A stretch of 64,000 bases of DNA, from assembly GCA_024637155.1 (NCBI GenBank), contig JAGXFR010000019.1, forward strand, positions 1 through 64,000. The letters run 5' to 3'. The position numbers were made by a program, and so were the translations under genes. Shown here in pieces: positions 96 to 19,958 of this stretch. This DNA is from Burkholderiaceae bacterium. GTDB lineage: Bacteria > Pseudomonadota > Gammaproteobacteria > Burkholderiales > Burkholderiaceae_E. Position 1 is the stretch's first letter; every line of letters starts with the position of its first letter. Under the pieces are notes generated by a model. The model was not told the DNA's origin, ran no database searches, and worked only from the letters and a program-made list of their open reading frames with translations.

Positions 96-141
96 TTGGT
101 CGGGACGGAGTGATTCGAACACTCGACCCCTTGCACCCCAT
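96..141. repeat. Left attachment site (46-bp partial tRNA-Pro copy)
   Basis: This is an exact direct repeat of 16618-16663. It contains the T-arm, variable region, 3' anticodon stem and part of the anticodon loop of tRNA-Pro, including the encoded CCA. After position 141 it diverges (TTTCCG instead of TGCAAG), so this copy is only a gene fragment. It marks the left boundary created by site-specific integration. Confidence 0.95.
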
Positions 142-2875: not shown

Positions 2876-2912
2876 TTAATGTTGCGAGTAACGTCGAACG
2901 CAATGAGCCCGA

Positions 2913-3365: not shown

Positions 3366-3387
3366 CCCCCGGGGCTTGTTCTGGCGC

Positions 3388-3857: not shown

Positions 3858-3881
3858 CGTGAAGTCCTCGCTGCGGTGGTT

Positions 3882-5263: not shown

Positions 5264-5314
5264 GGCTATCGACCCCGTCGCCGACCCAAGCCGCAGGGCT
5301 CCAACCGAGATCGC

Positions 5315-5418: not shown

Positions 5419-5426
5419 GCGCGGCG

Positions 5427-6956
5427 TCACCGACCGACCTCCTTCAACTGTCCCGCGGCACCGCCCACCGCGCTCGCCGCGAGAGCAGCGAGAATGCGAT
5501 CCTCCAGGGCTTCGGGCGGCATCGACATCAGATCCTTCCGCACGAGCGCATTCCGCGCGCGCAGTTCAGGACCACCCTTTGGCTTGAATCGGAAGCCCGT
5601 CAGGGGCGGCTGTGGCCGTACCACCTCGTAGCCGCTACGCCGAGCAACATGATCGATGCGGCGTGTACCGAGGATCTTCTCCAATTCCTCTTTGTGGTCA
5701 AACGCCGGCGCTAGCAATTGCGCCGCGAAGACAATTTCGGGGCGGCCGAGGCGCTCTAAGGCATCGTCCAAAGGTCCCTCAGGAGCGTTCCAGGATTGCT
5801 GGAGGCGCTGCTTTGCGCGCGAGATCGGGGCGTGTCCATGCGGTTTGAACGCACCGATGTCCCGCGTCATGAGCCACCATCGAACCGATTGATTACCACC
5901 GCCTTCGCGGAGCCACGCGAAGTACCGTTCGAAGAAATCGGGGCGGCCCATGTCGCAGTGCCAGTTCTTCGGCGCACGCGATTCGAGGATGAACAGTCGC
6001 CGATCGTCCTCGGGCATGAACAGCACATCCCGATGGTTCGTGATCAGGAATACCCGCACCAGATTCATCACGTAGTACGGATCGTGGAACTTCCTGTCGG
6101 CGCGTAGGGTCTCGGGAGGCGTCGCCGTCAACGGCTTCAGGCCCTCGTACAGCAGCGGGTACCGATGATCTTGGTGCTGAGGGCGAACCTCATTGACGAT
6201 CAGCACCAAAGTCTCGCCGCAGTTCCCGAATCGGTCGAAAAGCACGTCTGGATCAACGACCTTGCTGTTGGCGGCGCCAACTGCCTTGATCAGCGGCAGC
6301 AAGAGAGCGTCCTTGCCGATGCCCTGCTCGCCGATCAAGGCGACGCCAAAATTCGCCTTTTCGCCGGGGCGCTGCACAACGTGGGCGCAATAGTCGAAGA
6401 ACACCATCCGGTTTTCGGCATCCGGAAACAAGTGTTCCACCAGCTCGAACCACAGCGTCGGCGGCTCGTGTCCGGCATCGAGCGGAAGCGGTTCGGGCGG
6501 ACGGTAGGTGTTGAATAGGCGCGCTCCTAGCGACGGTTCAGGGCCGGAGTCGCGCATGATCACGTCGCGAATAATCTGCGGCTTCCCGGGCCACCACGTG
6601 CTCCCCTCGACAAACTGATCGTTCTCAACGCGACAAATGTCGGCCGAAGGCGCTATCAGTCGCTCGCGCCGGTTACGTGGTCGCCCCCTGCGTCGAGATT
6701 GCCCTTCAGGCGGCTCAGGATCGCCCTCCTCCACCTCGACCCGCCACAACGTCCGCGGGATCGACGCGTCGACCGCTTTCGGTCCGTAGAGCTTGCCGAC
6801 GCGGAGATCCCAGTAGGCTTCCTGCGCCTTGTCGTAGACGTAGTCCTCGGGTCGCGCTTGGCGGCGCTGTTGGGCCAACAGTTTCGCCAGTTCCTCCATC
6901 TCGGCTTGAACTCGCGCCCGAACGGCGTCGCCGCTACTTGTTTCATTGCTCATCAT
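5427..6956 (-). CDS. DUF5906/VapE-type SF3-like helicase (satellite replication protein)
   Basis: This ~509-aa protein carries a Walker A motif (GEQGIGKD) in the context of a virulence-associated-E / D5-like superfamily 3 helicase. It also has VFFDYCAHVVQRPGEKANFG before it, an LVLIVNEVR Walker B-like strand and an RVFLITNHRDVLFMPEDDRR sensor region. An N-terminal helical part (residues 1-90) may be the primase or accessory region; no catalytic primase motif is evident. These proteins drive autonomous replication of satellites. The start is one of two adjacent ATGs (6956/6953). Upstream is AlpA; downstream is the candidate origin. Confidence 0.82.
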   Translation of the reverse strand: MMSNETSSGDAVRARVQAEMEELAKLLAQQRRQARPEDYVYDKAQEAYWDLRVGKLYGPKAVDASIPRTLWRVEVEEGDPEPPEGQSRRRGRPRNRRERLIAPSADICRVENDQFVEGSTWWPGKPQIIRDVIMRDSGPEPSLGARLFNTYRPPEPLPLDAGHEPPTLWFELVEHLFPDAENRMVFFDYCAHVVQRPGEKANFGVALIGEQGIGKDALLLPLIKAVGAANSKVVDPDVLFDRFGNCGETLVLIVNEVRPQHQDHRYPLLYEGLKPLTATPPETLRADRKFHDPYYVMNLVRVFLITNHRDVLFMPEDDRRLFILESRAPKNWHCDMGRPDFFERYFAWLREGGGNQSVRWWLMTRDIGAFKPHGHAPISRAKQRLQQSWNAPEGPLDDALERLGRPEIVFAAQLLAPAFDHKEELEKILGTRRIDHVARRSGYEVVRPQPPLTGFRFKPKGGPELRARNALVRKDLMSMPPEALEDRILAALAASAVGGAAGQLKEVGR

Positions 6957-7048
6957 TGGCCAGCCGTCTGTAATCGCGCGACTCGTGCGGATCCGCATCG
7001 AACTCGCTACCGCACCGAGGCAAGCCGCCGACCCCAGCATCACACCAG

Positions 7049-7345
7049 CTACCGGTCGCGTTCATTTCGGGCGCCCCCGGCTTGGGTTCGACGACCGCCG
7101 CGGGCGCGCGCTTCCAATACTTCCCTCCGCCGCGGTGGCACTACCCCCGCGTCACGCTCGGCGACACGCTGCGTGTTCCACTCACAAACCTCGCCCGCAA
7201 TCCATGCGGTTTGTCGCGCGTCGAGCAGGACCGGCGCCGGAAAGGTACCTGCGCGGACGCGATTGTCGATACCGCGCGGGCTGAGGCCCGTCACCTCGCA
7301 AACACGCGGCTTGCGCCACAAGATCGGAAAACTTTCATCGCTCAC
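7049..7345 (-). CDS. AlpA-family transcriptional regulator / excisionase-like
   Basis: This 98-aa protein starts with a MerR-like winged-helix of the AlpA type: WRKPRVCEVTGLSPRGIDNRVRAGTFPAPVLLDARQTAW followed by VCEWNTQRVAERD. The GTG start at 7345 is supported by AGGAG 6 nt upstream. AlpA proteins activate integrase/excision or replication genes in P4-like satellites and PICIs. It is the first gene of the minus-strand block and is followed by the helicase. The basic C-terminal tail (about 30 residues) is not part of the domain. Confidence 0.85.
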   Translation of the reverse strand: MSDESFPILWRKPRVCEVTGLSPRGIDNRVRAGTFPAPVLLDARQTAWIAGEVCEWNTQRVAERDAGVVPPRRREVLEARARGGRRTQAGGARNERDR

Positions 7346-7447
7346 TGTGAACTCCTGGGAAAGTTAGCTGACGAAGTAAGGATGCCGCGCGAAAGCGACG
7401 CGCCAGAACTGCACGACGCTTTCTTTCATCTAGGGGTCGTAAAGAAG

Positions 7448-7481
7448 AAGCCCCGAGGATCTCTCGATCCCCGGGGCTTTT
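7448..7481. terminator. Bidirectional Rho-independent terminator
   Basis: AGCCCCGAGGATC and GATCCCCGGGGCT form a 13-bp stem with one mismatch around a TCTC loop. It is followed by TTTT on the plus strand and by TTCTTCTTT on the minus strand. It ends the small minus-strand gene at 7500-7787 and insulates alpA. Confidence 0.85.
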
Positions 7482-7499
7482 GCTGAGGGCGCCAACTGT

Positions 7500-7787
7500 C
7501 TAGCTGCTTGACGTCTGCAGCGAGACCTGCCAGTCGAACGCGTCCTCCCGCGCGATGAGCAATTTGCGCAGCGTTTCAATCCAGCGCACGTCAAGGTCGA
7601 GAGTAGCGTCCACAACGCGCATGGCCTTTTCGCTTCCCTCTGACACCGCTAAACGCCAGATCCACCTCAACTCATGGGTCGACACGGTAACAAACTTGAC
7701 CACGTTGCCATCGCGTTCCGCAGCCGTGCACTCCGCCATGATGTCGTACGGGTTCCTTGTTGCCAAAGACTTACGTTTTGTTGTCAT
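7500..7787 (-). CDS. Hypothetical protein (95 aa)
   Basis: The ATG at 7787 has a near-perfect ribosome binding site (GGAGG, 5 nt spacing), which overrides a longer reading. The product begins MTTKRKSLATRNPYDIMAEC and contains VVKFVTVSTHELRWIWRLA and DLDVRWIETLRKLLI. It is soluble and mixed alpha/beta, with no recognised family. It is monocistronic, followed by a strong terminator. Its position just upstream of alpA would suit a regulator or immunity function, but nothing in the sequence proves that. Confidence 0.7.
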   Translation of the reverse strand: MTTKRKSLATRNPYDIMAECTAAERDGNVVKFVTVSTHELRWIWRLAVSEGSEKAMRVVDATLDLDVRWIETLRKLLIAREDAFDWQVSLQTSSS

Positions 7788-8233
7788 TTGTACCTCCATA
7801 TTGAATGTCGTCGCCACTCCATGGGCGACGCTCAACAAGGGTCCCAGACAAGAACGTCAAGCCAGAACTGCATGACGCAAAGATCCGAGTAGGCAAAGAG
7901 ATGGGGTACGAGTCTCCGAAGGACGCCGACTCTACGGGCCCATCGTCAATCGAGGCAAGGGCGCCGGTGACGGTGGCGGCGCAACTGCCGCGGACTCAAG
8001 CGGATATTGAGTCGGAGACGCCGTTACTAGACGTGGAGGGGCGCTCATTGCTAACCGCTCCGGACGCGTCGTAGTAACCGCGCAGAAGAGGCGGAGCCTC
8101 TGCAAATGGCCGAATACGGCGCGAGAGGCTTGCAATTGGCTCAACCTAAAGGGCACTCTGGAGTCAGACTGCGTAACATGCAATAGTCTTTCCCAGATTA
8201 GGTAATTATCGTTAATGGGAGAACCACCTCGTC
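7788..8233 (+). other. Gene-poor junction containing a decayed small-terminase fragment
   Basis: No intact gene is supported here. The plus-strand reading at about 7967-8050 matches the element's own small terminase (listed separately). A short near-repeat (GCCAGAACTGCAyGACGC) occurs at 7402-7419 and 7861-7878, on either side of the 95-aa gene. The region lies exactly between satellite core genes and restriction cargo, so it looks like a recombination scar. Confidence 0.6.
7967..8050 (+). pseudogene. Small-terminase-like remnant
   Basis: The plus-strand translation VTVAAQLPRTQADIESETPLLDVEG aligns with VAAQLARTLADIEREAALLDAEG of the minus-strand small terminase at 2913-3365. Conserved positions are V-A-A-Q-L, R-T, A-D-I-E, L-L-D and E-G. 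The nucleotide match is clearly lower than for a recent duplication, so this is probably a leftover of a related but different phage or satellite. Only the central ~25 residues survive, and the orientation is opposite to the intact copy. Confidence 0.65.
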
Positions 8234-10966
8234 ATGGCCCTTCACCCTGAGTTTCCGCGCTCGCCCTACGAGGTTCTGAGTCCGGCGCTTCGCTGGTTTC
8301 CGGCTGCCGAGGAACTGCGTCATACGGCCTACGAGAAGCTGCTGCCGCCGCTGGTGGCCAAGGTTCGAGAAGAGGTCAAGACCTGGCGCGAATCGGGTTA
8401 TACAGGAGCATCCGCAACGTCCCGTGCGCTGCTCGCTTGGTGGTTCCATACGGACCACCTGATGGAGCAAGCGGATGGCGCGCAAAGCGCGTTCCGCTAC
8501 TACTTCGCGCAGCGCGAAGCAGTCGAAACGGTGATCTGGCTCTACGACGTACGCGGCGCACGCGACAAATTCGACCTGCTGCGCTTCGATGCTTCCGGTG
8601 CAGTATCGAGCAACATGTTTGACGAGGACTGGCCGCGCTTCGTGGTCAAAATGGCCACGGGCGCGGGCAAGACCAAAGTGCTGTCGCTGCTGATTGCTTG
8701 GTGCTACTTCCACAAGCTCTACGAAGCGGATTCGTCGCTGGCACGCAACTTCCTGCTGATCGCGCCCAACATCATCGTGTTGGATCGCCTGCGTGCCGAC
8801 TTCGACGGGCTACGCATTTTCTTCAACGATCCAGTCCTGCCCGACAACGGCTATGCCGGGCAGAACTGGCGGGATGATTTCCAGGTGGCCTTGCACATTC
8901 AGGACGACGTACGCGTCGTCCGCCCGACCGGCAACATATTCCTGACCAACATTCACCGCGTCTATCTCAGCGATGTGCCCGAACCTTCGCTCGACGATGA
9001 TGACATGCGCGACTACTTCCTCGCCCCCTTCGGCGCAAAGCCCGTCGGCAAGACCACAGACAACAACACCGACTTGGGCGAGATCGTTCGCGAGATCGAT
9101 GAACTCGCAGTGTTCAATGACGAAGCGCACCACATCCACGACAACCGCATGGCCTGGTTCCAATGCATCCAGGACATTCACCACCGCCTTCTTCAGAAAG
9201 ACCTACGGCTGGCGATACAGGTGGACGTAACGGCCACGCCGCGCCACGACAACGGCGCGATCTTCGTGCAGACCGTGAGCGACTATCCACTGGTTGAAGC
9301 GATTGCCCAGAACGTGGTCAAGCACCCGGTGTTGCCGGATGCCGCCAGCCGCGCCAAGCTCGCCGAATACAAGAGCCCGCTCATCACCGAGAAGTACGCA
9401 GACTACCTACAGCTCGGCGTCGAGGAATGGCGCAAGAGCTACGCTGAGCACGAAAAGCTGGGCAAGAAGGCCGTGCTGTTCGTGATGGTCGACGACACCA
9501 AAAACTGCGACGAGGTGGGCGCGCACCTTGAGAAGATTTGCCCCGAGTTCCAGGATGCGGTGCTGGTGATCCACACCAAAAACAACGGCGAGATTTCCGA
9601 GGCAGCCTCTGGCAAGAACAAGGAGGAGCTGGAGGTTCTGCGCAAGCAGTCGAACGAGATCGACACTTGGAAGTCGCCGTTCAAGGCAATTGTCTCCGTG
9701 CTGATGCTCAAGGAAGGGTGGGACGTTCGCAACGTCACCACCATCGTCGGTCTGCGCGCATACGCTGCCAGGAGCAACATCCTGCCTGAGCAAACGCTAG
9801 GGCGTGGTCTGCGCCGCATGTATTTCGGCACTGACCAGCGCGAGACCGTTTCGGTCATGGGAACGCCCGCCTTCATGGAATTCGTGGAATCCATCCAGAA
9901 CGAAGGCGTCACCTTCGACCGGGTCCCGATGGGCGGCGCAGGAGGGCGGGAACGGCAGGACTCTCTGGTCGTTGAAGTGGAGACCGAATCGCCTGACAAG
10001 GACATCGACGCACTCGACATCTCTGTACCGCGACTGACCCGGCGCTACAACCGGGAATTCAAAGACCTGACGGAGCTGGCGCCCGAGTTCTTCGGCAACC
10101 CGAAGCTACCCGTCAAGGCTTTCACACCGGAAGAGACCCGCGAAATCGTCTTCAAGACCATGCTCGACGCCGAGGTCGATCACACAATGCTCCTAGACGG
10201 TACCGGTCCTGGCGACTATCGCGCCGTCGTAGCGTTCTTTGCCCGGCAGCTCCTCAAGGACTTGCGCCTCGTCGGCGGTTACGACCTGCTCTATCCGAAG
10301 GTCAAGACGTTCATCCGTGACCATCTCTTCACCAACCCCGTCGATCTTGAAGATCCGGTGATCCTGCGCAACCTGTCCGAGCCGGAGGTCAGCAAGGTGC
10401 TGTTCGACCATTTCCGCTCAGCGATCAACAAGCTGACGATCTACGAGAGTGGTAGCTCGCGCATCGACGGGCATATCCGGTTGCGCGATACCCGCCCCTT
10501 CCGCACTGAGCCGCGCGGCTTCGTGCAAGCGAAGAAGTCGGTGTTCAACCGCATTGTCGGTGAGGCCAGCGCCGATGGCCTGGAGCTGGCATTCGCCGCG
10601 TTCCTCGAAACCGCGCCCGATGTACAGGCCTTCGGCAAGAACTACATGGCGGTTGGCTTCAAGATCGAGTACGTCAAGGGCAACGGTGAACTGTCTACCT
10701 ACACGCCGGACTTCATTGTCAGAACTGGGAGCGGCGAAGTCTGGATCGTCGAGACCAAGGGTCGCGAGGAACTTGACCTGCCGCAGAAAATGGCGCGGCT
10801 GCGTCAATGGTGCGAAGACGCCACCGAAGCGACCAGGGACGATGGAGGGCCGACTTACCACTTCGTCTATGTCGATCAGGCGAGTTTCGAGCAGCACAAG
10901 CCGTCAACGTTCGCGGGACTAGCCAGCACTTTCCGCGAATACCAAAATGAAAACCGCAAGGGCTGA
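8234..10966 (+). CDS. Type III-like restriction endonuclease (Res, SF2 helicase-nuclease)
   Basis: This 910-aa protein combines an SF2 helicase with a C-terminal nuclease. Walker A is MATGAGKT (about residue 140-147). The DEAH-type box is FNDEAHH (about 294-300), motif III is VTAT, and the arginine-finger motif VI is QTLGRGLRRM. The C-terminus has a PD-(D/E)XK signature, TPDFIV then VWIVETKG (about 823-842). Residues 1-140 are a helical adaptor for DNA or Mod binding. Two bases separate its stop from the methyltransferase ATG, so the two genes form one unit. It would cleave foreign DNA lacking the cognate methylation. Gene order (res before mod) is the reverse of classical Type III systems. 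Confidence 0.9.
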   Translation: MALHPEFPRSPYEVLSPALRWFPAAEELRHTAYEKLLPPLVAKVREEVKTWRESGYTGASATSRALLAWWFHTDHLMEQADGAQSAFRYYFAQREAVETVIWLYDVRGARDKFDLLRFDASGAVSSNMFDEDWPRFVVKMATGAGKTKVLSLLIAWCYFHKLYEADSSLARNFLLIAPNIIVLDRLRADFDGLRIFFNDPVLPDNGYAGQNWRDDFQVALHIQDDVRVVRPTGNIFLTNIHRVYLSDVPEPSLDDDDMRDYFLAPFGAKPVGKTTDNNTDLGEIVREIDELAVFNDEAHHIHDNRMAWFQCIQDIHHRLLQKDLRLAIQVDVTATPRHDNGAIFVQTVSDYPLVEAIAQNVVKHPVLPDAASRAKLAEYKSPLITEKYADYLQLGVEEWRKSYAEHEKLGKKAVLFVMVDDTKNCDEVGAHLEKICPEFQDAVLVIHTKNNGEISEAASGKNKEELEVLRKQSNEIDTWKSPFKAIVSVLMLKEGWDVRNVTTIVGLRAYAARSNILPEQTLGRGLRRMYFGTDQRETVSVMGTPAFMEFVESIQNEGVTFDRVPMGGAGGRERQDSLVVEVETESPDKDIDALDISVPRLTRRYNREFKDLTELAPEFFGNPKLPVKAFTPEETREIVFKTMLDAEVDHTMLLDGTGPGDYRAVVAFFARQLLKDLRLVGGYDLLYPKVKTFIRDHLFTNPVDLEDPVILRNLSEPEVSKVLFDHFRSAINKLTIYESGSSRIDGHIRLRDTRPFRTEPRGFVQAKKSVFNRIVGEASADGLELAFAAFLETAPDVQAFGKNYMAVGFKIEYVKGNGELSTYTPDFIVRTGSGEVWIVETKGREELDLPQKMARLRQWCEDATEATRDDGGPTYHFVYVDQASFEQHKPSTFAGLASTFREYQNENRKG

Positions 10967-10968
10967 CG

Positions 10969-13137
10969 ATGGCACGCCAAGACAAGAAATCCTATGACCT
11001 CAGCGAAGCCGAGCAGCGCGACCTGGTCACGCTAATCCAGCAAGGCAAGGTCCTGCCGGAGAAATTCCGCTTCATCCTGTTCGAGGACAAGCGCGAGGTC
11101 GAATTGGTCTGGAACGGCAAGACTCGGGACGTTTGCACCACGGTGCTGCCCTTCCAAACGCTTGAACACATTGACGAGCCACGCACCGAGACCAAGACGC
11201 AGGAAGACCTCTTCGACAGTCGTGGCCGCCAACAAAGAGGCTGGACCAACAAGCTAATCTGGGGTGACAACAAGCTGATCTTGTCGTCGCTGAAGGCGGG
11301 ACCGCTGCGCCAGCAGATCGAGGACGCGGGGGGGCTGAAGCTGATCTACATCGACCCGCCGTTCGACGTAGGCGCGGATTTCAGCATGGATATCGAGATC
11401 GGCGGCGAGACCTTCCACAAGGAGGCGAACCTGCTGGAGCAAATCGCCTATCGCGACACTTGGGGGCGCGGCGCTGACAGCTTCATTTCGATGATCTATG
11501 AGCGTCTGATTTTGATGCGGGACTTGATGGCTGATGACGGCAGCATTTACGTGCACTGCGACTACCGCGTGAGCAGTTACATGCGCGGCGTGCTGGACGA
11601 GGTCTTCGGAAAAGAGCAACTCCGCAACCACATTCTTTGGCTATATAGCGGTGGTGGTGTGCCTAGGTCGGAGATGCCAAAGAAGCACGACGATATCTTC
11701 TGGTACACGAAGGGTCAGACTTGGACCTATAACCCAATTTTTCGTGAATACTCCGAAGGAACCGTTCAACGAGGTCGCACGGCCGTCAAGGGTGAGAACG
11801 CAGAACTACGTGCGGAGGGAACACCAATCAACAACTGGTGGCCCGACGTAAAGAAAATTACAAGCCCAACAGATCCCGAGAAGCTGTACTACCCAACGCA
11901 GAAGTCAGAGGAGTTGCTTGAGAGAATCATCTCGCTTTCCAGCAATGGAGGTGACCTAGTTGCCGACTTCTTCGTAGGCTCCGGCACGACTGCCGCAGTC
12001 GCCGAAAAGCTCGGGCGCAAATGGATCGCAACCGACCTGGGAAAGTTCGGGGTCCACACGACGCGGAAGCGGTTGATCGGCGTTCAGCGCGAGAAGAAAG
12101 CCGCCGAGCAAGACTTCCGCGCCTTTGAGGTGCTGAACCTTGGCCGCTATGAACGGCAGGCCTACCTGAACGTCGGCGGGCGCTTGACAGCCACACAGAA
12201 GGCGCAAGCACTCGCCCAGAAAGAAAACGAGTTCCGCGAGTTGATCCTGCGTGCCTATAAGGCTTCCGGATTTGGCGGCAACGAAGGCGCGCAGGCACAG
12301 GACGGGTTTTTCCACGGTGCGCGCAATGGACGGCTAGTGGTGATCGGCCCGATTAATCTGCCCGTGGGGCGGTTGTTCGTCGAAGAGGTCATCACCGAAT
12401 GCCGCAAGCGTGGCGCCTCCCGCGTGGACGTGCTGGCCTTCGAGTTCGAGATGGGCCTGTTCCCCGCCGCGCTGGAAGAGGCGCGCGGAAAGGGCATCGA
12501 CCTTACCCCGAAATACATTCCCGCCGAAGTCTTCGACAAGCGCGCGGTGGATAAGGGCCAGGTGGTCTTTCACGACATCAGCTTCGTCGAAGCCACACCG
12601 CGCTACGACAAGAAGGACAAACGCGCGGTCAAGATCGAACTGGCCGACTTTTCCGTCTACTACACGCAGGGCGCCGCCGAATCCGCGATCGCCGCCATGA
12701 AGGATGGCAAGAGCGAGGTCATGTGCGAGCAGGGCCAGCTCTACAAGGTCAGCAAGAACAAGGACGGCATCGTCAAGAAAGAGAAGCTCACCAAGCACTG
12801 GACCGACTGGGTCGATTACTGGGCGGTGGACTTCGATTATTTTCAGCGCAAGGAAATCATCAAAGTGCCGGTGGGATCGAGCCTCGGCGGCGTCACGTCG
12901 CTGCCGGGTTTCGAGCCACCGCAAGGTGAACTCGCCATGCAATTCGAGGAACGCTGGACGGGCGGCTACATCTTCGAAAACGAATGGCAGAGCTTCCGCA
13001 CACGCCAGAACCGCGACCTGGAGCTGACGACCGCGCTGCACACCTACGACCGGCCCGGTCGCTACACCGTCGCCGTCAAGGTGATCGATATCTTTGGGAA
13101 TGACACGATGACGCTCGTTCCCGTGAACGTGGGGTAA
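10969..13137 (+). CDS. Adenine-specific DNA methyltransferase, beta class (Mod)
   Basis: This 722-aa N6-adenine methyltransferase forms the modification subunit for the upstream endonuclease. The catalytic motif IV (YIDPPF, about residue 127-132) precedes the target-recognition region and the SAM-binding motif I (DFFVGSGTT, about 333-341); this order defines the beta class used by Type III Mods. Beyond about residue 400 there is an unusually long C-terminal region, ending in a beta-sandwich-like YDRPGRYTVAVKVID segment reminiscent of PKD/Ig-like folds. That extension probably serves as a recognition or interaction module with the nuclease. The gene appears intact. Confidence 0.9.
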   Translation: MARQDKKSYDLSEAEQRDLVTLIQQGKVLPEKFRFILFEDKREVELVWNGKTRDVCTTVLPFQTLEHIDEPRTETKTQEDLFDSRGRQQRGWTNKLIWGDNKLILSSLKAGPLRQQIEDAGGLKLIYIDPPFDVGADFSMDIEIGGETFHKEANLLEQIAYRDTWGRGADSFISMIYERLILMRDLMADDGSIYVHCDYRVSSYMRGVLDEVFGKEQLRNHILWLYSGGGVPRSEMPKKHDDIFWYTKGQTWTYNPIFREYSEGTVQRGRTAVKGENAELRAEGTPINNWWPDVKKITSPTDPEKLYYPTQKSEELLERIISLSSNGGDLVADFFVGSGTTAAVAEKLGRKWIATDLGKFGVHTTRKRLIGVQREKKAAEQDFRAFEVLNLGRYERQAYLNVGGRLTATQKAQALAQKENEFRELILRAYKASGFGGNEGAQAQDGFFHGARNGRLVVIGPINLPVGRLFVEEVITECRKRGASRVDVLAFEFEMGLFPAALEEARGKGIDLTPKYIPAEVFDKRAVDKGQVVFHDISFVEATPRYDKKDKRAVKIELADFSVYYTQGAAESAIAAMKDGKSEVMCEQGQLYKVSKNKDGIVKKEKLTKHWTDWVDYWAVDFDYFQRKEIIKVPVGSSLGGVTSLPGFEPPQGELAMQFEERWTGGYIFENEWQSFRTRQNRDLELTTALHTYDRPGRYTVAVKVIDIFGNDTMTLVPVNVG

Positions 13138-13142
13138 TCACA

Positions 13143-13564
13143 TTGGCACTGATGGACCTGGCGAAGATTCAAGAGTTGCCTTCGGGCGCGCGTTTCTATC
13201 GATGCGCATTCCAGGTCAACACATTCGACTACGTGCCGCCGCGTGAGGCGGTCGCGGAAGCCTTTCAGCGCAAGCAACGAAAGGCCCGAAGGCTTTCAGA
13301 CGACGAACTCGGACGTCGCGCAGAACAGGCTCACGCAAAGCCGGGACGCCGCGAGACTACGTCAACCCCTCATGATCGCAGTCCGTGGGTAGCAGAGCAC
13401 GCGAAACGTCGTGCCAAGGGCTATGCGACCTTTGTGGGCAGGGCGCACCGTTCATGGACCATGACGGTCAACCATATCTTGAAAGTCACCACGTCATTTG
13501 GCTAGCAAACGATGGAGAGGATCACTACTCGAAAGAAGCGCTTGCCGGGCAAATTGCTTGGTGA
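13143..13564 (+). pseudogene. Frameshifted and truncated HNH endonuclease
   Basis: The first ~93 codons (TTG at 13143 or ATG at 13152) read as the N-terminal part of an HNH nuclease, ending SPWVAEHAKRRAKGY. Adding one base near 13422-13424 restores KGYCDLCGQGAPF, then DHDGQPYLESHHVIWLANDGED, the zinc-finger and His-His core of the family. The expected closing segment (a CPNCH-type motif) is absent: after about 13522 the frame runs into unrelated sequence and stops at 13562. The gene is therefore broken twice, by a one-base deletion and by loss of its 3' end. It follows the methyltransferase closely and was probably part of the restriction cassette. Confidence 0.8.
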
Positions 13565-13982
13565 TGCTGGCGAGCACTACGCGTTAAGTCAGTTCAGCTT
13601 TGCCGGCAAGTACGCCGCGAAAATGCCTGACAACTGGGAGGCCTACGACCTAGCCGTCGAGACTGGCTCAGGCCTAGTGCGTGTGAGCGTGAAGACCCGA
13701 AGCGAGACAAGTGGCTGGAAGGCCAACAGCTGGTTCACCTTCGACGATCGGAAGGAATGTGATTGGGTGGTTTTTATTTTCAAGCCGCGCACTGGAATCG
13801 TCCGTTCGTGGATCGTTCCATACGAGGTAGTTGAACAGAACGCGAATGTGCCTGGTCTCGGCCGCAAGGATGCGTGGTTTCGTGATGTCTCTTGGGCCAA
13901 GCTAAACAAATCGCCACTGGCGGATTACGAGAATAATTGGTCGCTCTTGGCGGATCCAGGAGATGTGTCACAACGTGGCTAG
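13512..13982 (+). CDS. PD-(D/E)XK-like protein of unknown role (156 aa)
   Basis: This 156-aa soluble protein starts inside the broken HNH gene. Glu21 (GDAGEHYALSQ), Asp46 (EAYDLAV) and the strand VRVSVKTR with Ser59-x-Lys61 match the E...D...(E/Q/S)xK layout of restriction/resolvase-fold nucleases. A WFTFDDRKECDWVVFIF core strand follows. No clear ribosome binding site precedes the ATG, so the original start may have been lost at the junction with the HNH fragment. A nuclease or DNA-binding function is plausible; the target is unknown. Confidence 0.65.
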   Translation: MERITTRKKRLPGKLLGDAGEHYALSQFSFAGKYAAKMPDNWEAYDLAVETGSGLVRVSVKTRSETSGWKANSWFTFDDRKECDWVVFIFKPRTGIVRSWIVPYEVVEQNANVPGLGRKDAWFRDVSWAKLNKSPLADYENNWSLLADPGDVSQRG

Positions 13983-14322
13983 GCTCTCGCCAACAATCCT
14001 GTGTGCGATCAGATCAGTATTTCGCGCGCGGATCAATTCCCGCGACCTAGTCCCTTTGTGGGGTTCTCGCCACTGAGCCTGAGGAGCAGAATCAGGCACG
14101 GAAAATGGGAGGATGGAATCAACTTCCACGACCTAGCGAATGATGCGTTGGCTGAAGGGCTCCGAGCGCTGCTCGGAAGGGACATTATGGCGGCACAGGC
14201 CAGCGAACCAACTGCAGTACCGGGGGCAGAAGGCGTCCAACCGTCTGGTTGGGTTCGCCGATGCCGAAAATCGGGTACAAGACCGTCTCTCCAGCACACC
14301 TTAGAAGCCGGAGGAATTACCG
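13983..14322. other. Intergenic stretch before the first cassette-like gene; no supported gene
   Basis: A plus-strand frame is open from 14001 to 14354, but it overlaps the start of the next gene, has no ribosome binding site and matches nothing I recognise. It contains TTAGAAGC at 14301, which lies 22 nt before the next start codon. That is the same distance as between the attC core TTAG (15277) and the second cassette gene (15299). A degenerate attC upstream (RYYYAAC-like GTCCAAC at 14235) cannot be demonstrated. Confidence 0.5.
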
Positions 14323-15210
14323 TTGACTACAGTAGAAGTTCATCGGGAAGTTGATCGCTTCGTCCTCTACTTCGAAACGCCGAAGCATGAGGTGAGTGCA
14401 TATGCGCTTGCTAGCGCCCTTGTGGGACTAGCAGATGCCGTGCGTGAGGCCAACAACCTTGTCAACCCAGGGCACGTTGTTGAGGTCGTTGTCGAGTCAC
14501 TCAGTGACGGTAGCTTCAAGGCAACGGTTCGAACGGTTTACACCAAGGCAAAAAATCTCTTCTCGCACACCGCCGTTCAGGCGGTGATCTACGGAGTCAT
14601 CTCGACCTACGTCTACGAGAAGGGCCTGAAGTCTGAAGTACCTCCGCAAATTATCGTCACCGGTGATCTCGTGACTGTAGTCATTGGTAACGACAGGATC
14701 ATCGTCCCCAAGGACGTCTACGAGGCAAAGCGCCAACTTGAGAAATCGATTCGCTTCAAGAGCGCAGTAGGTCAAATCTTCGATGCCGCCAGTTCTGACG
14801 TTTCAATCACTGGCCTCGCGATTACCGAAGATGATGGTGGCAAACGGCCACCGCTCATGGTGAATCGGGAACAGTTCGCGATCTTTGAGGTGAGCCGAGA
14901 CGTTGATGAGCACATCCGCGAGATTGTGGAAATCACACACGTTGAAATCAATCGCGCCATCCTGGAGCGTGGTAAGCGTCGCTGGGAGTTCTTCTGGCGA
15001 GGTATTCGTATAGCCGCACCGATACTCGACGACGGCTTCTACGATCGGTTCTTCGCGCATGAAATAACCATAGCGCCAGGCGACTCTTTGCATGTTGCCC
15101 TCCGAATCATCCAAGAGAAGAGTCGCGACACTGGAATCTATGTGAACGCTAGATACGAGATCGTGGAGGTCTATGAACACCTTCCTCGACTCAAACAAAC
15201 CGGCTTCTAA
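14323..15210 (+). CDS. Uncharacterised cassette protein (295 aa)
   Basis: The TTG start at 14323 is favoured by GGAGG about 8 nt upstream. The 295-aa product begins MTTVEVHREVDRFVLYFETP and reads as an N-terminal alpha/beta domain. A short hydrophobic stretch (AVQAVIYGVISTYVYE, about 87-102) follows, then a second beta-rich domain containing FFWRGIRIAAPILDDGFYDRFF. No catalytic motif is obvious and no family is recognised. The stop codon (TAA) lies inside a following attC-like site, typical of integron cassettes. The base composition is lower in GC than the chromosome. A defence or host-interaction role is only a guess from neighbourhood. Confidence 0.75.
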   Translation: MTTVEVHREVDRFVLYFETPKHEVSAYALASALVGLADAVREANNLVNPGHVVEVVVESLSDGSFKATVRTVYTKAKNLFSHTAVQAVIYGVISTYVYEKGLKSEVPPQIIVTGDLVTVVIGNDRIIVPKDVYEAKRQLEKSIRFKSAVGQIFDAASSDVSITGLAITEDDGGKRPPLMVNREQFAIFEVSRDVDEHIREIVEITHVEINRAILERGKRRWEFFWRGIRIAAPILDDGFYDRFFAHEITIAPGDSLHVALRIIQEKSRDTGIYVNARYEIVEVYEHLPRLKQTGF

Positions 15211-15282
15211 CCCTTACCATGGGGTCGAGCTGACGTCTCCCGGCCTGCAACATTCAGTCGCGGCTCACCTCAAACGTTAGGC
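15205..15282 (+). repeat. attC-like recombination site 1
   Basis: The outer arms are CTAAC (15207-15211) and GTTAGGC (15276-15282), matching the conserved integron core consensus GTTRRRY. The inner arms GGGGTCGAGC (15221-15230) and GCTCACCTC (15263-15271) pair over nine positions, leaving one unpaired base (C15226). That extrahelical base is the hallmark that gives attC its polarity. The total length is about 77 bp. It overlaps the stop codon of the preceding gene and lies 17 nt before the next ATG. Confidence 0.7.
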
Positions 15283-15298
15283 AACGCAACTACCTCAG

Positions 15299-16324
15299 AT
15301 GCCAATGGACCTATTCACCCCGGTCATTCCTCAATCTGAGCAACACCAAATCTTTCAAATGCTACTCGACAAGAGGTATGCAGCTGAAAGGGTCGTAGTT
15401 ACAAGCTTCGCAAGAGACTTTCGGGATCGTGACGGAAAATTCGTTCGCGAGTTTCAGAGCACTTTTGAGTCAAGCTTCTGGGAGCTCTATCTGAACGCTG
15501 CGGCGTCGACTTGGGGCTTAACTATCGACCGCACATACGGTTCACCAGACTTTGTAGTCACGGCACCAACCTCACTCTGCATTGAAGCAACTATTGCCGC
15601 GCCCGCACAGGGTGGCAAGCCTCCGATCGGCTACGAAATCTCAGACATCCCCGAAGACTTCACTGACTTCAACGTCCAAGCGTCTCTGCGCCTTAGCAAC
15701 AGCTTCACATCGAAGGTAAAGCGATATCGAGACTACTACGCTTCCCTTCCACAGGCTTCCAATCGCCCATTTGTTATAGCAATCGCCCCTTTCGACAGGC
15801 CAGGGGCACACTTTGCCGCTGGGCGTTCAGTCATGCCTACACTGTACGGCCTATACCACGATGAAGCAGCCACGTCGCCCGACGCGAAAGAAGTTGTGAG
15901 CTATAACGTCTCGGCTGCGGCCAAGTCCGAGACAGTCGTTGTGCCAATGGGCCTCTTCTGCGATGACGCCTACGAGGATGTTTCTGCGGTCATCTATAGC
16001 GCACTAGCTACTTGGGGCAAGATCCGAGCACTCGCCGACAACCCTGGCGCTAGGACCGTCTACACAACTTTCCACACGAATGAAGGCAGCTTGCTGCCGG
16101 AAGTTCGACGCACGCAAAAGAGCGACTACACCGAGGACCTACTTGACGGTCTGTACGTGCTGCACAACCCGTTCGCCAAGTTTCCTGTTCCCAGGGGCCT
16201 TCTATCCCATCATCGACTTGCAGAGGTACGCGTCGCCCATGATGGAGAGTTGCTCATAGAGGCGCCAGATGACTTTCTTCTCTTGCGCTCGCTCTTTTCA
16301 GTCAATGAGCGTTCCAGTTATTAA
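15299..16324 (+). CDS. Uncharacterised cassette protein with nuclease-fold-like N-terminus (341 aa)
   Basis: This 341-aa protein starts at ATG 15299 (a second in-frame ATG is at 15305), 22 nt after the attC core TTAG. Residues FWELYL (Glu62), GSPDFVV (Asp84) and CIEATIA (Glu96) follow the spacing of a PD-(D/E)XK nuclease core, but the expected Lys two residues after Glu96 is Thr. The protein may therefore be inactive or use a variant site. The N-terminus MDLFTPVIPQSEQHQIF and the DRDGKFVREFQ segment resemble a widespread uncharacterised bacterial family I have seen but cannot name with certainty. It is followed by a second attC-like site. Confidence 0.75.
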   Translation: MPMDLFTPVIPQSEQHQIFQMLLDKRYAAERVVVTSFARDFRDRDGKFVREFQSTFESSFWELYLNAAASTWGLTIDRTYGSPDFVVTAPTSLCIEATIAAPAQGGKPPIGYEISDIPEDFTDFNVQASLRLSNSFTSKVKRYRDYYASLPQASNRPFVIAIAPFDRPGAHFAAGRSVMPTLYGLYHDEAATSPDAKEVVSYNVSAAAKSETVVVPMGLFCDDAYEDVSAVIYSALATWGKIRALADNPGARTVYTTFHTNEGSLLPEVRRTQKSDYTEDLLDGLYVLHNPFAKFPVPRGLLSHHRLAEVRVAHDGELLIEAPDDFLLLRSLFSVNERSSY

Positions 16325-16330
16325 GGGGCT

Positions 16331-16407
16331 ACCTAGCCCTTCCATCAATCCGGACGCCTGCCGGCAAGCTCCGCTAGCCTCCAGTCTCCCCGCGGATGAC
16401 GTTAGGC
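16331..16407 (+). repeat. attC-like recombination site 2
   Basis: The outer arms are CCTAGC (16332-16337) and GTTAGGC (16401-16407). The left arm departs by one base from the RYYYAAC consensus. The inner arms CATCAATCCG (16343-16352) and CGGATGAC (16393-16400) pair if one A is left unpaired. It starts just after the stop of the preceding gene and is about 77 bp long, as for site 1. The two sites share only the core and the architecture, as expected for attC. Confidence 0.6.
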
Positions 16408-16570
16408 CCTACGCCTGCAGCATCCGACGTTCAATCGCCCGATGGTGGTCTCGTTCAGTCGTTTTCGCGGCAAACTTGGCAGCCTGCCGTTCATGCGTCC
16501 GCCGCGTCGACCGAACTTCGAACTAGCTCAGAGAAATAGAAGCACCCCTAAAAGCACCCCTAGAAAGAAA
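16408..16570. other. Right arm of the element with GCACCCCT repeats
   Basis: No gene is supported between the second attC-like site and the terminator. GCACCCCT occurs at 16541-16548 and 16553-16560, the same motif found three times left of the integrase gene and once in each att core. These are candidate integrase arm-binding sites on the opposite arm. Confidence 0.5.
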
Positions 16571-16600
16571 AACGGGTTACGCCTTTCAGCGTAACCCGTT
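16571..16600 (-). terminator. Rho-independent terminator downstream of tRNA-Pro
   Basis: A perfect 12-bp inverted repeat (AACGGGTTACGC / GCGTAACCCGTT) with a 6-nt loop is followed, on the minus strand, by TTTCTTTCTA (with the arm end, TTTTTCTTTC-like). It lies inside the element, so the integrated element provides the terminator of the host tRNA gene. Confidence 0.85.
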
Positions 16601-16618
16601 GATTTACTTCTATTATTT

Positions 16619-16697
<79 letters not shown>

Positions 16698-16704
16698 GCC
16701 GTGC

Positions 16705-16733
16705 ATTATAGCAGCGGGAATCTCACTCGATGC
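16705..16733 (-). promoter_or_regulatory. Promoter of tRNA-Pro
   Basis: A perfect TATAAT (-10) lies on the minus strand at 16710-16705, ending 9 nt before the mature 5' end. The -35 region (GCATCG at about 16733-16728, 17-nt spacing) is weak and overlaps the last codons of the merR-family gene. Confidence 0.6.
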
Positions 16734-17124
16734 GCAGCAGTTTGAGGGCTGCCTCCAAGTCTGCGCGGGCGCTGCCGACTTCGTCTGGCGTCGGGGTGGC
16801 CACTGCCTCGTCGGAGGGTTGGGATGGCGCCGCAGCGCTGCGGCCGCGACCGTTTTGCGATGCCTCGAGCAGTCGGTTGCGCGCGCCGCTGATCGTGAAA
16901 CCGTCCTCGTAGAGCAGCTCGCGAATCCGACGCACGAGCAGCACCTCGTGATGCTGGTAGTAGCGTCGATTGCCGCGACGCTTCATCGGGCGCAGCTGCG
17001 TGAATTCCTGTTCCCAGTAGCGCAGCACGTGCGGCTTTACCGCGCACAGTTCGCTCACCTCACCAATCGTGAAGTAGCGTTTCGCCGGAATCGGCGGCAG
17101 GGGGGCCTCGCTCTTGGTCGACAT
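16723..17124 (-). CDS. MerR-family transcriptional regulator
   Basis: This 133-aa protein has a MerR winged-helix: RYFTIGEVSELCAVKPHVLRYWEQEF, then RPMKRRGNRRYYQHHEVLLVRRIRELLYEDGFTISGARNRL. The C-terminal third is Ala/Pro/Ser-rich and ends in a short helix; there is no metal-binding Cys cluster. The gene following ihfA and preceding tRNA-Pro is the standard arrangement in Betaproteobacteria. Its ligand and target are unknown. Confidence 0.9.
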   Translation of the reverse strand: MSTKSEAPLPPIPAKRYFTIGEVSELCAVKPHVLRYWEQEFTQLRPMKRRGNRRYYQHHEVLLVRRIRELLYEDGFTISGARNRLLEASQNGRGRSAAAPSQPSDEAVATPTPDEVGSARADLEAALKLLRIE

Positions 17125-17159
17125 CGCGGCGTGTTGGGCGGGAGAGGATGAATCGCGGC

Positions 17160-17531
17160 TCAGCTGCCGACGGAGTCAATCTGGGTCTTGAGCTTCTGGC
17201 TGGCGTGAAAGGTCACCACGCGGCGCGCGCAGATCGGGATCTCTTCTCCGGTCTTGGGATTGCGTCCGGGGCGCTGCGGCTTGTCGCGCAACTGGAAATT
17301 CCCGAAGCCCGAGAGCTTCACGCTCTCGCCGCGCTCGAGCGCGTCACGGATCTCGTCGAAAAAGGTGTCGACCATGTCCTTGGCTTCGCGCTTGTTCAAC
17401 CCGACCGATTCGAACAGCAGCTCGGCGAGTTCGGCCTTCGTCAGCGTGAAGGACGGCGCCCGGGGCGCCGGGCTCGTCCCCACCGCCGCCGGCTCGAGGC
17501 GTTCGTCGGGCTGTGTGTCGCGCTGGTTCAT
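17160..17531 (-). CDS. ihfA: Integration host factor subunit alpha
   Basis: This is the DNA-bending HU/IHF-family subunit. The core starts at [33 protein letters not shown] and contains the [13 protein letters not shown] turn and the DNA-intercalating arm [13 protein letters not shown]. It ends with [13 protein letters not shown]. At 123 aa it carries a ~25-residue N-terminal extension compared with the E. coli protein. It lies directly downstream of pheT in the same orientation, as in many Proteobacteria. IHF is also needed by many tyrosine integrases, such as the one in the neighbouring element. Confidence 0.96.
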
Positions 17532-17564
17532 GGTCGCTTCAGTGTTCTCGTTTCCGGAGCTCGT

Positions 17565-19958
17565 TTAGCGCAGCCGCGCGCCCAGTTCGACAGCCAATCG
17601 GGCGACGATGACCTGCATCGCCTGAGCCACCTGAGCGTCGTCCAGGGTGCGGTCAGTATCTTGCATCCAAATTCTGAACGCAAGGCTTTTTTCCTTATTT
17701 TCCAACCCCTTACCGCGATATTCGTCAAATAACTTGACGTATTTCACACTCCTTGCAACAGGGTCCGCCGCGGCCGCGGCGCGGATCGCGGCGGCCACCC
17801 GTGCCGCCGGCACATCGTCGGCGACCACCAGCGCCAGGTCGCGGATCGCCGGCGGGAAGCGGGACACCTCGGCGAAGAGCGGAATCCCGACCGTCAGCAG
17901 TGGCTCGAGGTCGATTTCCATCACCAGCGCAGCCCGGGGCAGTTCAAGCTGTTGCTGCAGTGCCGGGTGAATCTCGCCCAGCCAGCCGACCGGCGTGCCG
18001 CGCAGCAGCACGCGCGCGGCCCGGCCCGGATGCAGCGCCGGATGTTCACCGGGCTCGAAGCTCCACTCGGACTCCGGCGCCAGCGTGACCAGATCTCCCT
18101 TGAGATCGAAGAAATCGACCCCTCGCCCGGCCAGACCCCATTGCTCGCCGGACGCGTCGCCGTAGGCGAGCGCCGCCAAGCGCTGCGGTTGCGCCACACC
18201 GGCCACCGCAAGCGGTCCCGCGCTGACGCTCGCATCCGGGCGAAACACGCGACCGACCTCGAAGATGCGCACCCGCGCCGCCTTGCGGTTCAGGTTGGCG
18301 CGCAGATTCTCGACCAGGCCCCCGAGCAGCGTCGTGCGCATCACGTCCAGATTCGAGGCGATCGGGTTGAGCAGCCGGATCGGTGCCGCGTGCGAGAGCA
18401 GCGCGTCGGTGCGCGAATCGACGAAACTGTAGTTGATCACTTCCTGGAAATCGCGCGCCGCCATGGCTCGCTTGATCGTTCCGACACTCCTGCGACCCTC
18501 GGGACACGCGAGCATCGGCAGCGACGCCACCGGGGGCCGCTGCGGCAGACGTTCGAAGCCCCAGACCCGCGCCACCTCTTCGATCAGGTCTTCCTCGATC
18601 TGCAGGTCGAAACGGTACGCGGGCGGGGTGACCCGGAAGGATCCGGGTTCGCGTTCGAAGTCGAAGCCCAGGCGCGTGAAGATCTCGGCGATCTCCTGCT
18701 CGCTGACCGCGGCGCCGATCACCCGCTGGGCCCGCGCGACGCGCAGCACCACCGGCTCGCGCTCCGGCAGGCCCGTGATCTGGTCGTCGACCGGGCCCGC
18801 CTGCCCGCCGCAGATCTCGAGCACCAGTCGCGACAGGTACTCGAGGTGCTCGACCGTGCTCGCGGGGTCCACCCCGCGCTCAAAGCGATGCGCCGCGTCG
18901 GTGGTGAAGTTCAGCCGGCGTGCGCGCCCGGCGATGGCGTCGGGCCACCAGAAGGCCGCTTCGAGGTAGACATCGGTCGTGTCGAGCGTCACCGCGGTGC
19001 GCTCGCCGCCCATGATTCCGGCGATGCTCTCGACCTGATCGGCGTCGGCGATGACACCGATTCCGGCGTCGAGTGCCACCGTACGGCCGTTAAGCAGTTC
19101 GAGCTGCTCTCCTTCGCGCCCCCAGCGCACCGTCAGGGGCGCGCGGATCTTGCCCAGGTCGAACACGTGCGTGGGCCGACCGAGTTCGAGCATCACGTAA
19201 TTGGAGATGTCCACCAGCGCCGAGATCGGGCGCTGCCCGGCGTGCTCGAGACGGCGCTTCATCCACTCCGGGGTCGGTGCGCGCGCATCGACTCCGCGAA
19301 TCACGCGGCCCGAGAAGCGCCCGCACAGATCGTCCGCCTCGATGTGCACCGCAACGCGTTCGTCCAGGCTGACCGGAGCGGGTTCGAAGCGCAGCGCGCG
19401 CAGCGGGGTGTTGCTGAGCGCGGCGACTTCGCGGGCCACGCCAAAGACGCTCAGGCAGTGGGCAAGATTCGGAGTGAGCTTGAGCAGATGCACCGGATCG
19501 TCGAGATCCAGGAATTCGCGGATGTCGGCGCCAACCGGCGCGTCGGCCGGGAGCGCCAGCAGACCGGCGTGCTCCTCGGAAATCCCCAGTTCGCGCGCCG
19601 AGCACAGCATCCCGTGGCTGTCGACGCCACGCAATTGTGCCGCGCCGATCGGCAGTCCTCCCGGCAGCACGGCACCGGGCAGTGCACAGGGCACGCGCAG
19701 CCCCGGCGCCACGTTGCTCGCCCCGCAGACGATCTGGCGCAACTCGGTGCCGTCCCAGACTTCGCAGATCGAGAGCTTGTCGGCCTGCGGATGCGGCCGG
19801 ACCGTGCGCACCTCGGCCACCACCACGCGCTCGAAGGGCGGAGCGAACGGGGTCGACTCCTCGACCTCGAGCCCCGCCATCGTCAATGCGTCGGCCAGCT
19901 CCTGCGAGTTCCAGGGCGGCGCGACGAAACTGCGCAGCCAGCTCTCGGGAATCTTCAT
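17565..19958 (-). CDS. pheT: Phenylalanyl-tRNA synthetase beta subunit
   Basis: This 797-aa protein starts at MKIPESWLRSFVAPPW (ATG 19958). It contains the N-terminal tRNA-binding EMAP-like domain (VRPHPQADKLSICEVWDG), the B3/B4 editing region, the B5 domain and the C-terminal ferredoxin-fold anticodon-binding domain (FPPAIRDLALVV). With PheS it forms the alpha2beta2 synthetase that charges tRNA-Phe and edits Tyr-tRNA-Phe. It lies 26 nt downstream of pheS, and its length is normal. Confidence 0.98.
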   Translation of the reverse strand: MKIPESWLRSFVAPPWNSQELADALTMAGLEVEESTPFAPPFERVVVAEVRTVRPHPQADKLSICEVWDGTELRQIVCGASNVAPGLRVPCALPGAVLPGGLPIGAAQLRGVDSHGMLCSARELGISEEHAGLLALPADAPVGADIREFLDLDDPVHLLKLTPNLAHCLSVFGVAREVAALSNTPLRALRFEPAPVSLDERVAVHIEADDLCGRFSGRVIRGVDARAPTPEWMKRRLEHAGQRPISALVDISNYVMLELGRPTHVFDLGKIRAPLTVRWGREGEQLELLNGRTVALDAGIGVIADADQVESIAGIMGGERTAVTLDTTDVYLEAAFWWPDAIAGRARRLNFTTDAAHRFERGVDPASTVEHLEYLSRLVLEICGGQAGPVDDQITGLPEREPVVLRVARAQRVIGAAVSEQEIAEIFTRLGFDFEREPGSFRVTPPAYRFDLQIEEDLIEEVARVWGFERLPQRPPVASLPMLACPEGRRSVGTIKRAMAARDFQEVINYSFVDSRTDALLSHAAPIRLLNPIASNLDVMRTTLLGGLVENLRANLNRKAARVRIFEVGRVFRPDASVSAGPLAVAGVAQPQRLAALAYGDASGEQWGLAGRGVDFFDLKGDLVTLAPESEWSFEPGEHPALHPGRAARVLLRGTPVGWLGEIHPALQQQLELPRAALVMEIDLEPLLTVGIPLFAEVSRFPPAIRDLALVVADDVPAARVAAAIRAAAAADPVARSVKYVKLFDEYRGKGLENKEKSLAFRIWMQDTDRTLDDAQVAQAMQVIVARLAVELGARLR

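What the first reader, a model, noticed from the sequence alone, without database searches (positions are those of the whole stretch)
15299..16324. 341-aa cassette protein with a variant nuclease-like site
E62, PD84 and E96 fit a PD-(D/E)XK frame, but Thr replaces the expected Lys. It could be an inactive nuclease acting as a sensor, or a variant active site. Its start-to-attC distance is typical of cassettes.
Basis: partly seen in the sequence, partly recalled or inferred. Interest (0 to 1): 0.5.

Follow-up and report, generated by a model that had tools for sequence, protein, structure and literature searches.

The report
Known phage-defence nuclease with relocated lysine

Summary
The ORF at 15299-16324 is real and is a PD-T7-5 protein: PADLOC PDLC04110, E 8.6e-98, residues 3-336 of 341. 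PD-T7-5 is an E. coli anti-phage system from Vassallo et al. 2022, and a review table already lists it under PD(D/E)XK nucleases (PMC10952713). T98 is not conserved (T/V/M/A). Of the protein's ten lysines only K139 is invariant (32/32, 66/66). In a confident AlphaFold model (pLDDT 94.8) E62 lies in the first core helix, D84 and E96 at the central strands, and K139 in the helix that follows. This matches a described variant in which the motif III lysine migrates to the motif IV helix (PMC1913061), so an active, lysine-shifted nuclease is likelier than a dead sensor. Side-chain distances could not be measured and fold matches are weak. The gene is cargo of a 16.5-kb tRNA-Pro element; two same-genus relatives show the empty site. 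The integron-cassette reading is plausible but unproven. Verdict: new member of a known kind.

The parts
15299..16324 (+). PD-T7-5 family protein (341 aa; likely true start at 15305)
   Evidence: PADLOC PDLC04110 E 8.6e-98, residues 3-336; phrog_8571 E 1.9e-82; no Pfam or NCBIfam hit
15482..15484 (+). E62, motif I glutamate in helix 56-71
   Evidence: 32/32 and 66/66; model
15545..15550 (+). P83-D84, motif II, just before strand 85-89
   Evidence: P 32/32, D 31/32 (one E); both 66/66; model
15584..15592 (+). E96-A97-T98, motif III on strand 93-100; T98 occupies the usual Lys position
   Evidence: E96 32/32 and 66/66; T98 column = V17/T14/A1 and T33/V27/M3/A3
15713..15715 (+). K139, candidate migrated catalytic lysine in helix 121-145 (motif IV)
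   Evidence: only invariant Lys of 10: 32/32 and 66/66; model
16133..16171 (+). second conserved patch in the C-terminal part, E279 to P291
   Evidence: N290 32/32 and 66/66; E279 30/32 and 66/66
15205..15282 (+). attC-like site between the two last ORFs
   Evidence: TTCTAAC...GTTAGGC; bottom-strand fold -13.3 kcal/mol, z -1.85, 7 of 200 shuffles as good
16331..16407 (+). weaker attC-like site after the ORF
   Evidence: ACCTAGC...GTTAGGC; bottom-strand fold not unusual, z -0.61, 51 of 200 shuffles as good
96..141 (.). left attachment repeat of the element
   Evidence: 46-nt perfect copy of 16618-16663; empty site in two relatives
16618..16663 (.). right attachment repeat, the 3' part of tRNA-Pro (GGG) 16619-16695
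14323..15210 (+). neighbouring ORF, LAPAL_fam / PDC-S42 candidate defence protein
   Evidence: NF053583 E 6.5e-55, over its cut-off; PDLC05015 E 3.3e-22

Best explanation
The protein is a PD-T7-5-family anti-phage effector. It most likely works alone as a metal-dependent nuclease with a PD-(D/E)XK fold, using E62, D84 and E96 to hold metal ions. The invariant K139, in the helix after the third core strand, takes the role of the usual motif III lysine, whose place is held by T98 here and by T, V, M or A in relatives. During infection it would cut nucleic acid and stop the phage. Shown here: family membership, conservation, and predicted placement of these residues on the core elements of the fold. 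Inferred: metal binding, catalysis, the role of K139, and phage defence in this host. The substrate (phage DNA is my guess) and the trigger are unknown.
For: PADLOC PD-T7-5 match 8.6e-98 against 2.5e-48 for PD-T7-1. Conservation: E62 32/32, D84 31/32, E96 32/32, K139 32/32; all four 66/66 in a second set, of whose rows 58 are under 90% identical to every row of the first (58/58 for all four). The T98 column never holds Lys in either set. AlphaFold model pLDDT 94.8, pTM 0.93: helix 56-71 (E62), strand 85-89 (D84 just before it), strand 93-100 (E96), helix 121-145 (K139), strand 158-164. Residues 44-170 folded alone keep this arrangement, pLDDT 90.7. Aligned to 121 PDB chains preselected by Foldseek, the top row is the Holliday junction resolvase Hjc 1gef (Z 5.5, rmsd 2.8, 77 aligned); all 50 entries shown, of 104 chains at Z 2 or more, are nucleases or viral/retrotransposon polymerases with an endonuclease domain (that these share the fold is recalled). 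Weak Pfam hints among the 66 members: BsuBI/PstI restriction endonuclease (3 members, best E 0.032) and L-protein N-terminus (2 members, best E 0.0038) head the list (that both are PD-(D/E)XK-type is recalled). Precedent: in DUF1626 the motif III Lys is often replaced by Thr and is thought to have migrated to the motif IV helix (PMC1913061, passages). A review table lists PD-T7-1 and PD-T7-5 under PD(D/E)XK (PMC10952713, one passage). Lone gene: the commonest neighbour family recurs in only 9 of 66 loci.
Against: No Foldseek match reached E 0.001 for the whole model or the core. All VIA Z scores are under 8, and for the whole model acetyl-CoA carboxylase rows (Z 5.6-5.8) tie with the best row (4g6v, Z 6.0). 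Coordinates were not returned, so the closeness of K139 to D84 and E96 was not measured. P0001 itself matches no Pfam family, and the weak nuclease hints among relatives cover at most 3 of 66 members beside 22 other families matched by one or two members each. K241 is nearly invariant too (28/32, 65/66) and could be the functional lysine. In the 66-row set the search patterns covered about residues 40-62 and 238-245, so the conservation of Q53, E62 and K241 there is partly built in; four rows shared by both sets came from patterns that include E62, E279 and N290. D84, E96 and K139 were in no pattern. No activity data for PD-T7-5 were found in the text read.
Confidence: 0.72

Rival explanations
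1. A catalytically dead PD-(D/E)XK protein that senses or binds phage nucleic acid without cutting it.
For: The motif III lysine position is Thr and never Lys in the two alignments.
Against: E62, D84, E96 and one lysine (K139) are kept in essentially every homologue down to about 21% identity; dead sites usually lose such residues (general knowledge).
Confidence: 0.1
2. An active nuclease that uses another residue in place of the motif III lysine: K241, or E279/N290 from the C-terminal part, with K139 structural or substrate-binding.
For: N290 is invariant (32/32, 66/66), E279 30/32 and 66/66, K241 28/32 and 65/66.
Against: K139 is the only fully invariant lysine and sits in the helix where migrated lysines are described (PMC1913061). 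K241 and, for four rows, E279/N290 lay in search patterns.
Confidence: 0.15
3. A PD-T7-5 homologue that is not used in phage defence here, for example a decaying cargo gene. This does not exclude the nuclease chemistry.
For: No expression or function data for this host; no homologue in the 60 other related genomes searched.
Against: Intact ORF with all the conserved residues, in a block with restriction-type genes.
Confidence: 0.15

Closest known systems
PD-T7-5 (E. coli functional selection of Vassallo et al. 2022; PADLOC PDLC04110)
   Same: Full-length match (residues 3-336 of 341), similar length (346-position model), no obligate neighbour gene seen
   Different: 56% identical to the closest E. 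coli relative found (L030), in another host and element; whether this copy protects is untested
PD-T7-1 (PADLOC PDLC04073; phage- and prophage-borne relatives such as L035, L117)
   Same: Homologous over nearly the whole protein (2.5e-48), same E62/D84/E96/K139 pattern
   Different: PD-T7-1 has about 105 extra N-terminal residues that this protein lacks
DUF1626 and other PD-(D/E)XK families with a migrated lysine (PMC1913061)
   Same: Thr (or another residue) at the motif III Lys position, conserved Lys in the motif IV helix
   Different: Only the pattern was compared, from the paper's words; no sequence or structure comparison with these families was made
Archaeal Holliday junction resolvase Hjc (1gef)
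   Same: Predicted core aligns (Z 5.5, rmsd 2.8, 77 residues); motif order E...D...E
   Different: Hjc keeps the motif III Lys (K48); 17% identity over the aligned part; it resolves junctions

Membership tests
PD-T7-5 | Full-length match to the family profile, better than to PD-T7-1 | tested here: met
   325.6 bits, positions 1-342 of 346, against 162.9 bits for PD-T7-1
PD-T7-5 | No obligate partner gene | tested here: met
   Within 3 kb (less where contigs end), no neighbour family in more than 9 of 66 loci, and none of the window's neighbours recur. That the original system is a single gene is recalled
PD-T7-5 | Protection against phage | not testable with these tools
   Needs plaque assays; the family's activity rests on PMC9519451 and papers citing it
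PD-T7-1 | N-terminal extension (model positions 1-106) | tested here: not met
   Match begins at model position 107
PD-(D/E)XK nuclease superfamily | Core helix-strand-strand-strand-helix-strand order | tested here: met
   Predicted elements 56-71, 75-76, 85-89, 93-100, 121-145, 158-164. The fold matches themselves are weak
PD-(D/E)XK nuclease superfamily | Motif I E, motif II (P)D, motif III E | tested here: met
   E62, P83-D84, E96
PD-(D/E)XK nuclease superfamily | Motif III lysine at its usual place | tested here: not met
   T98; the column never holds Lys in either alignment. Superfamily members with a migrated Lys are described
PD-(D/E)XK nuclease superfamily | Migrated lysine close in space to the metal site | not testable with these tools
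   K139 is invariant and in the expected helix, but model coordinates were not returned
RmuC | Match to the Pfam RmuC family | tested here: not met
   No Pfam family for P0001 at E up to 10, with HMMER's filters on; RmuC is not among the 24 families matched by any of 66 members
Integron gene cassette | attC site on each side | tested here: inconclusive
   GTTAGGC at 15276 and 16401 with partial R'' partners; only the first folds better than most shuffles; no Rfam support
Integron gene cassette | Integron integrase in the same genome | tested here: inconclusive
   Best TIGR02249 match 84 bits against a cut-off of 265, while all 14 control genomes also give sub-cut-off matches. The genome is 90.6% complete, and arrays without an integrase (CALIN) are known

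The most novel reading that the evidence does not exclude
The whole PD-T7-1/PD-T7-5 group is a distinct nuclease clade in which the catalytic lysine was permanently moved to the helix (K139), and the C-terminal lobe (E279, N290) adds residues to a composite active site that is switched on by a phage component.
Probability: 0.35. Interest if true: 0.45.

Novelty: new member of a known kind. Interest (0 to 1): 0.3.

Why it matters
PD-T7-5 and PD-T7-1 are reported to defend against phage, but the passages I read do not say how. Naming a handful of invariant residues, above all K139, gives a small set of mutants that would decide whether these proteins are nucleases. It also warns against calling a PD-(D/E)XK protein dead because the motif III lysine is missing.

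Tried and rejected
Pfam and NCBIfam found nothing for the protein. PDB sequence searches gave nothing above noise (profile: 0 hits; single sequence: best E 0.12). Foldseek gave best E values of 0.51 (whole model, PDB), 0.51 (whole model, viral library) and 2.3 (core, PDB). The first scan of viral contigs, with the single sequence, found no relative. Scans with three alignments found 52, 24 and 48 loci, partly the same contigs. Genome-wide, attC-type patterns were not enriched over their reversed controls (3 against 31; 6 against 10).

Rows dropped: of 40 loci with a tblastn match, 31 went into A1 with P0001. Nine were left out: three copies of the window itself (L001, L003, L022), a duplicate (L025), two views of one partial frame (L016, L029), one without a start codon in frame (L026), and two weak ones (L014, L021). 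L013 and L015, found by profile, had no tblastn match to P0001 and were not used. For A5, 124 loci (4 from genome contigs, 120 viral) gave 120 usable frames, cut to 65 by removing near-duplicates at 92%; these plus P0001 make 66. Of those 66, 8 are at least 90% identical to a row of A1 (five of them the same sequence), so the two sets overlap.

Rejected readings: RmuC relative (no Pfam match); dead sensor as the leading idea (see rivals); obligate pair with the LAPAL neighbour (no recurrence; no relative of that neighbour in the plasmid collection).

Full report
WHAT IS THERE. The ORF at 15299-16324 (+) is open, starts with ATG and codes for 341 residues. Against PADLOC it matches PD-T7-5 over residues 3-336 with E 8.6e-98, and the related PD-T7-1 with E 2.5e-48. 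It also matches phrog_8571, a phage family of unknown function, with E 1.9e-82. Pfam and NCBIfam have no family for it. The PD systems come from a functional selection of E. coli DNA against three phages that gave 21 systems, five of them with T7 (PMC9519451: section 2 part 2 read, other passages found). The name PD-T7-5 does not occur in the held main text, so I cannot say from it which phages it stops or whether it acts by abortive infection. A review table, citing that work, lists PD-T7-1 and PD-T7-5 under PD(D/E)XK nuclease (PMC10952713, one passage). Another paper mentions a weak RmuC-like prediction for both (PMC10270631, one passage).

RELATIVES. By tblastn (E 1e-5) relatives are in 98 of 72,556 plasmid records and 13 of 50,697 phage records. 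The profile rings in 12 of 398 sampled genomes of the phylum and the protein in 7 of 369 of the class, the window's own genome included each time. Of 61 close relatives only the window's own genome has it. A 56%-identical E. coli form (L030) has matches in 127 of 5,426 E. coli genomes, all at 99% identity or more. Scans of viral contigs with three sub-alignments found 52, 24 and 48 loci, partly the same contigs.

THE ACTIVE SITE. In 32 homologues (A1) the invariant residues are F56, E62, P83, E96, K139, F220, A230 and N290; D84 is 31/32, with one Glu. In a second set of 66 (A5), E62, P83, D84, E96, K139, E279 and N290 are all 66/66. The sets share P0001 and L017-L020, and three further A5 rows are at least 90% identical to an A1 row. 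Over the remaining 58 rows the same seven residues are 58/58. The T98 column is V17/T14/A1 in the first set and T33/V27/M3/A3 in the second, so Thr is not a special substitution in this protein but one of the normal states of the family. Of its ten lysines only K139 is invariant. Caution: the patterns used to collect the second set cover about residues 40-62 and 238-245, so E62, Q53 and K241 are partly selected there, and four rows common to both sets came from patterns that include E62, E279 and N290. D84, E96 and K139 were in no pattern.

THE FOLD. AlphaFold with 66 sequences gives pLDDT 94.8 and pTM 0.93. E62 is in helix 56-71, D84 just before strand 85-89, E96 in strand 93-100 and K139 in helix 121-145, followed by strand 158-164. 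Folded alone, residues 44-170 keep this arrangement (pLDDT 90.7). This is the core order of the PD-(D/E)XK fold. Structure comparison supports it only as a group. For the core, the best row is Hjc 1gef (Z 5.5, rmsd 2.8, 77 aligned), and all 50 entries shown are nucleases or polymerases carrying an endonuclease (assignments recalled); the chains compared were Foldseek's own 121 candidates. For the whole model the best row (4g6v, Z 6.0) is tied with acetyl-CoA carboxylase rows that are surely unrelated, and Foldseek gives no significant match. In the alignment to 1gef, model residue 11 pairs with Hjc residue 1; if ungapped there, E62 falls on Hjc E9, its motif I glutamate named. This last step is inference. 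Among the 66 members, the weak Pfam matches at the head of the list are BsuBI/PstI restriction endonuclease (3 members, best E 0.032) and L-protein N-terminus (2 members, best E 0.0038); 22 other families match one or two members each, so this is a hint and not proof.

HOW IT MOST LIKELY WORKS. A missing motif III lysine does not by itself mean a dead enzyme. PMC1913061 (passages) describes families in which this lysine migrates to the helix after the third strand, and for DUF1626 names Thr at the vacated position. That is the pattern seen here: Thr (or V/M/A) at 98 and an invariant Lys at 139 in that helix. I therefore read the protein as a likely active, metal-dependent nuclease with a relocated lysine. 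That it cuts DNA rather than RNA, and what triggers it, are not shown. N290, E279 and K241 form a second conserved set in the C-terminal part; they may belong to the same site or to recognition. No neighbouring gene family recurs in more than 9 of 66 loci, which fits a protein that works alone.

SURROUNDINGS. The gene is the last cargo gene of an element bounded by a 46-nt perfect repeat, 96-141 and 16618-16663, which is the 3' part of tRNA-Pro. Of five relatives' loci compared, all match the right flank and the repeat; in two same-genus ones (L178, L180) a continuous stretch also matches the 50 bases left of the repeat (window 46-141, 80% over 96 columns) and then 16612-18687, so their site is empty. 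The other three match little or nothing beyond the repeat on the left side. The window holds just 95 bases of left flank. The element has an integrase (332-1681), a terminase small subunit (2913-3365, -), a major capsid protein (3882-4973, -) and a primase-like protein (5427-7043, -). It also carries a restriction-type helicase (8234-10966), a type III-like methyltransferase (10969-13137), a small ORF with a weak PDDEXK_5 match (13512-13982) and the LAPAL/PDC-S42 ORF (14323-15210). This looks like a phage satellite with defence cargo, but I did not test that further.

CASSETTE QUESTION. GTTAGGC occurs twice in the window, bracketing the ORF, and the upstream site can fold as an attC-like hairpin on the bottom strand (z -1.85). 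The downstream one is not better than shuffles (z -0.61). No integron integrase reaches the cut-off in the 90.6%-complete genome, and attC-type patterns are not enriched genome-wide. Two cassettes without an integrase inside a satellite are possible: integron pieces in phages are reported (PMC9892861, passages) and arrays without an integrase are known (PMC12444791, passages).

NOVELTY AND SCORE. This is a new member of a known defence family. The added value is the K139 proposal, which I did not find in print. Six papers in the held library name PD-T7-5. I read passages in four of them; the other two (PMC13268207, PMC11811056) I know only from the listing. One of those two, PMC13268207, also holds the word 'lysine' and was not read. 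That is a limited search.

Noticed in passing
window 96-16663: A 16.5-kb tRNA-Pro-integrated element with integrase, terminase small subunit, major capsid protein and primase-like gene plus a block of defence-type cargo; resembles a capsid-carrying phage satellite. Two same-genus relatives show the empty site.
   Followed up: partly
window 14323-15210: ORF over the cut-off of NCBIfam LAPAL_fam ('putative phage structural protein') that also matches the PADLOC candidate defence family PDC-S42; the two names disagree about its role. No relative in the plasmid collection.
   Followed up: partly
window 13512-13982: 156-aa ORF with a sub-threshold match to PDDEXK_5 (E 0.0013, 19.2 bits against a cut-off of 26.1), possibly a second small nuclease in the same block.
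   Followed up: no
window 8234-13137: Restriction-type helicase (ResIII; BPTD_3080-like but below that cut-off) followed by a type III-like methyltransferase whose residues 687-715 weakly match PKD domains, below cut-off.
   Followed up: no
window 96-141; contig C43 1-45 of the same genome: A further copy of the tRNA-Pro repeat lies at the very end of contig C43, so the assembly may break at this repeat and a second element or the true chromosomal join may be there.
   Followed up: no
viral loci L046, L047, L079, L097, L115, L116, L135, L138, L144: Nine PD-T7-1/PD-T7-5 relatives in viral contigs share a neighbouring gene family of about 345 aa (portal-like by its first residues, recalled), suggesting a recurrent insertion spot in related prophages.
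   Followed up: no
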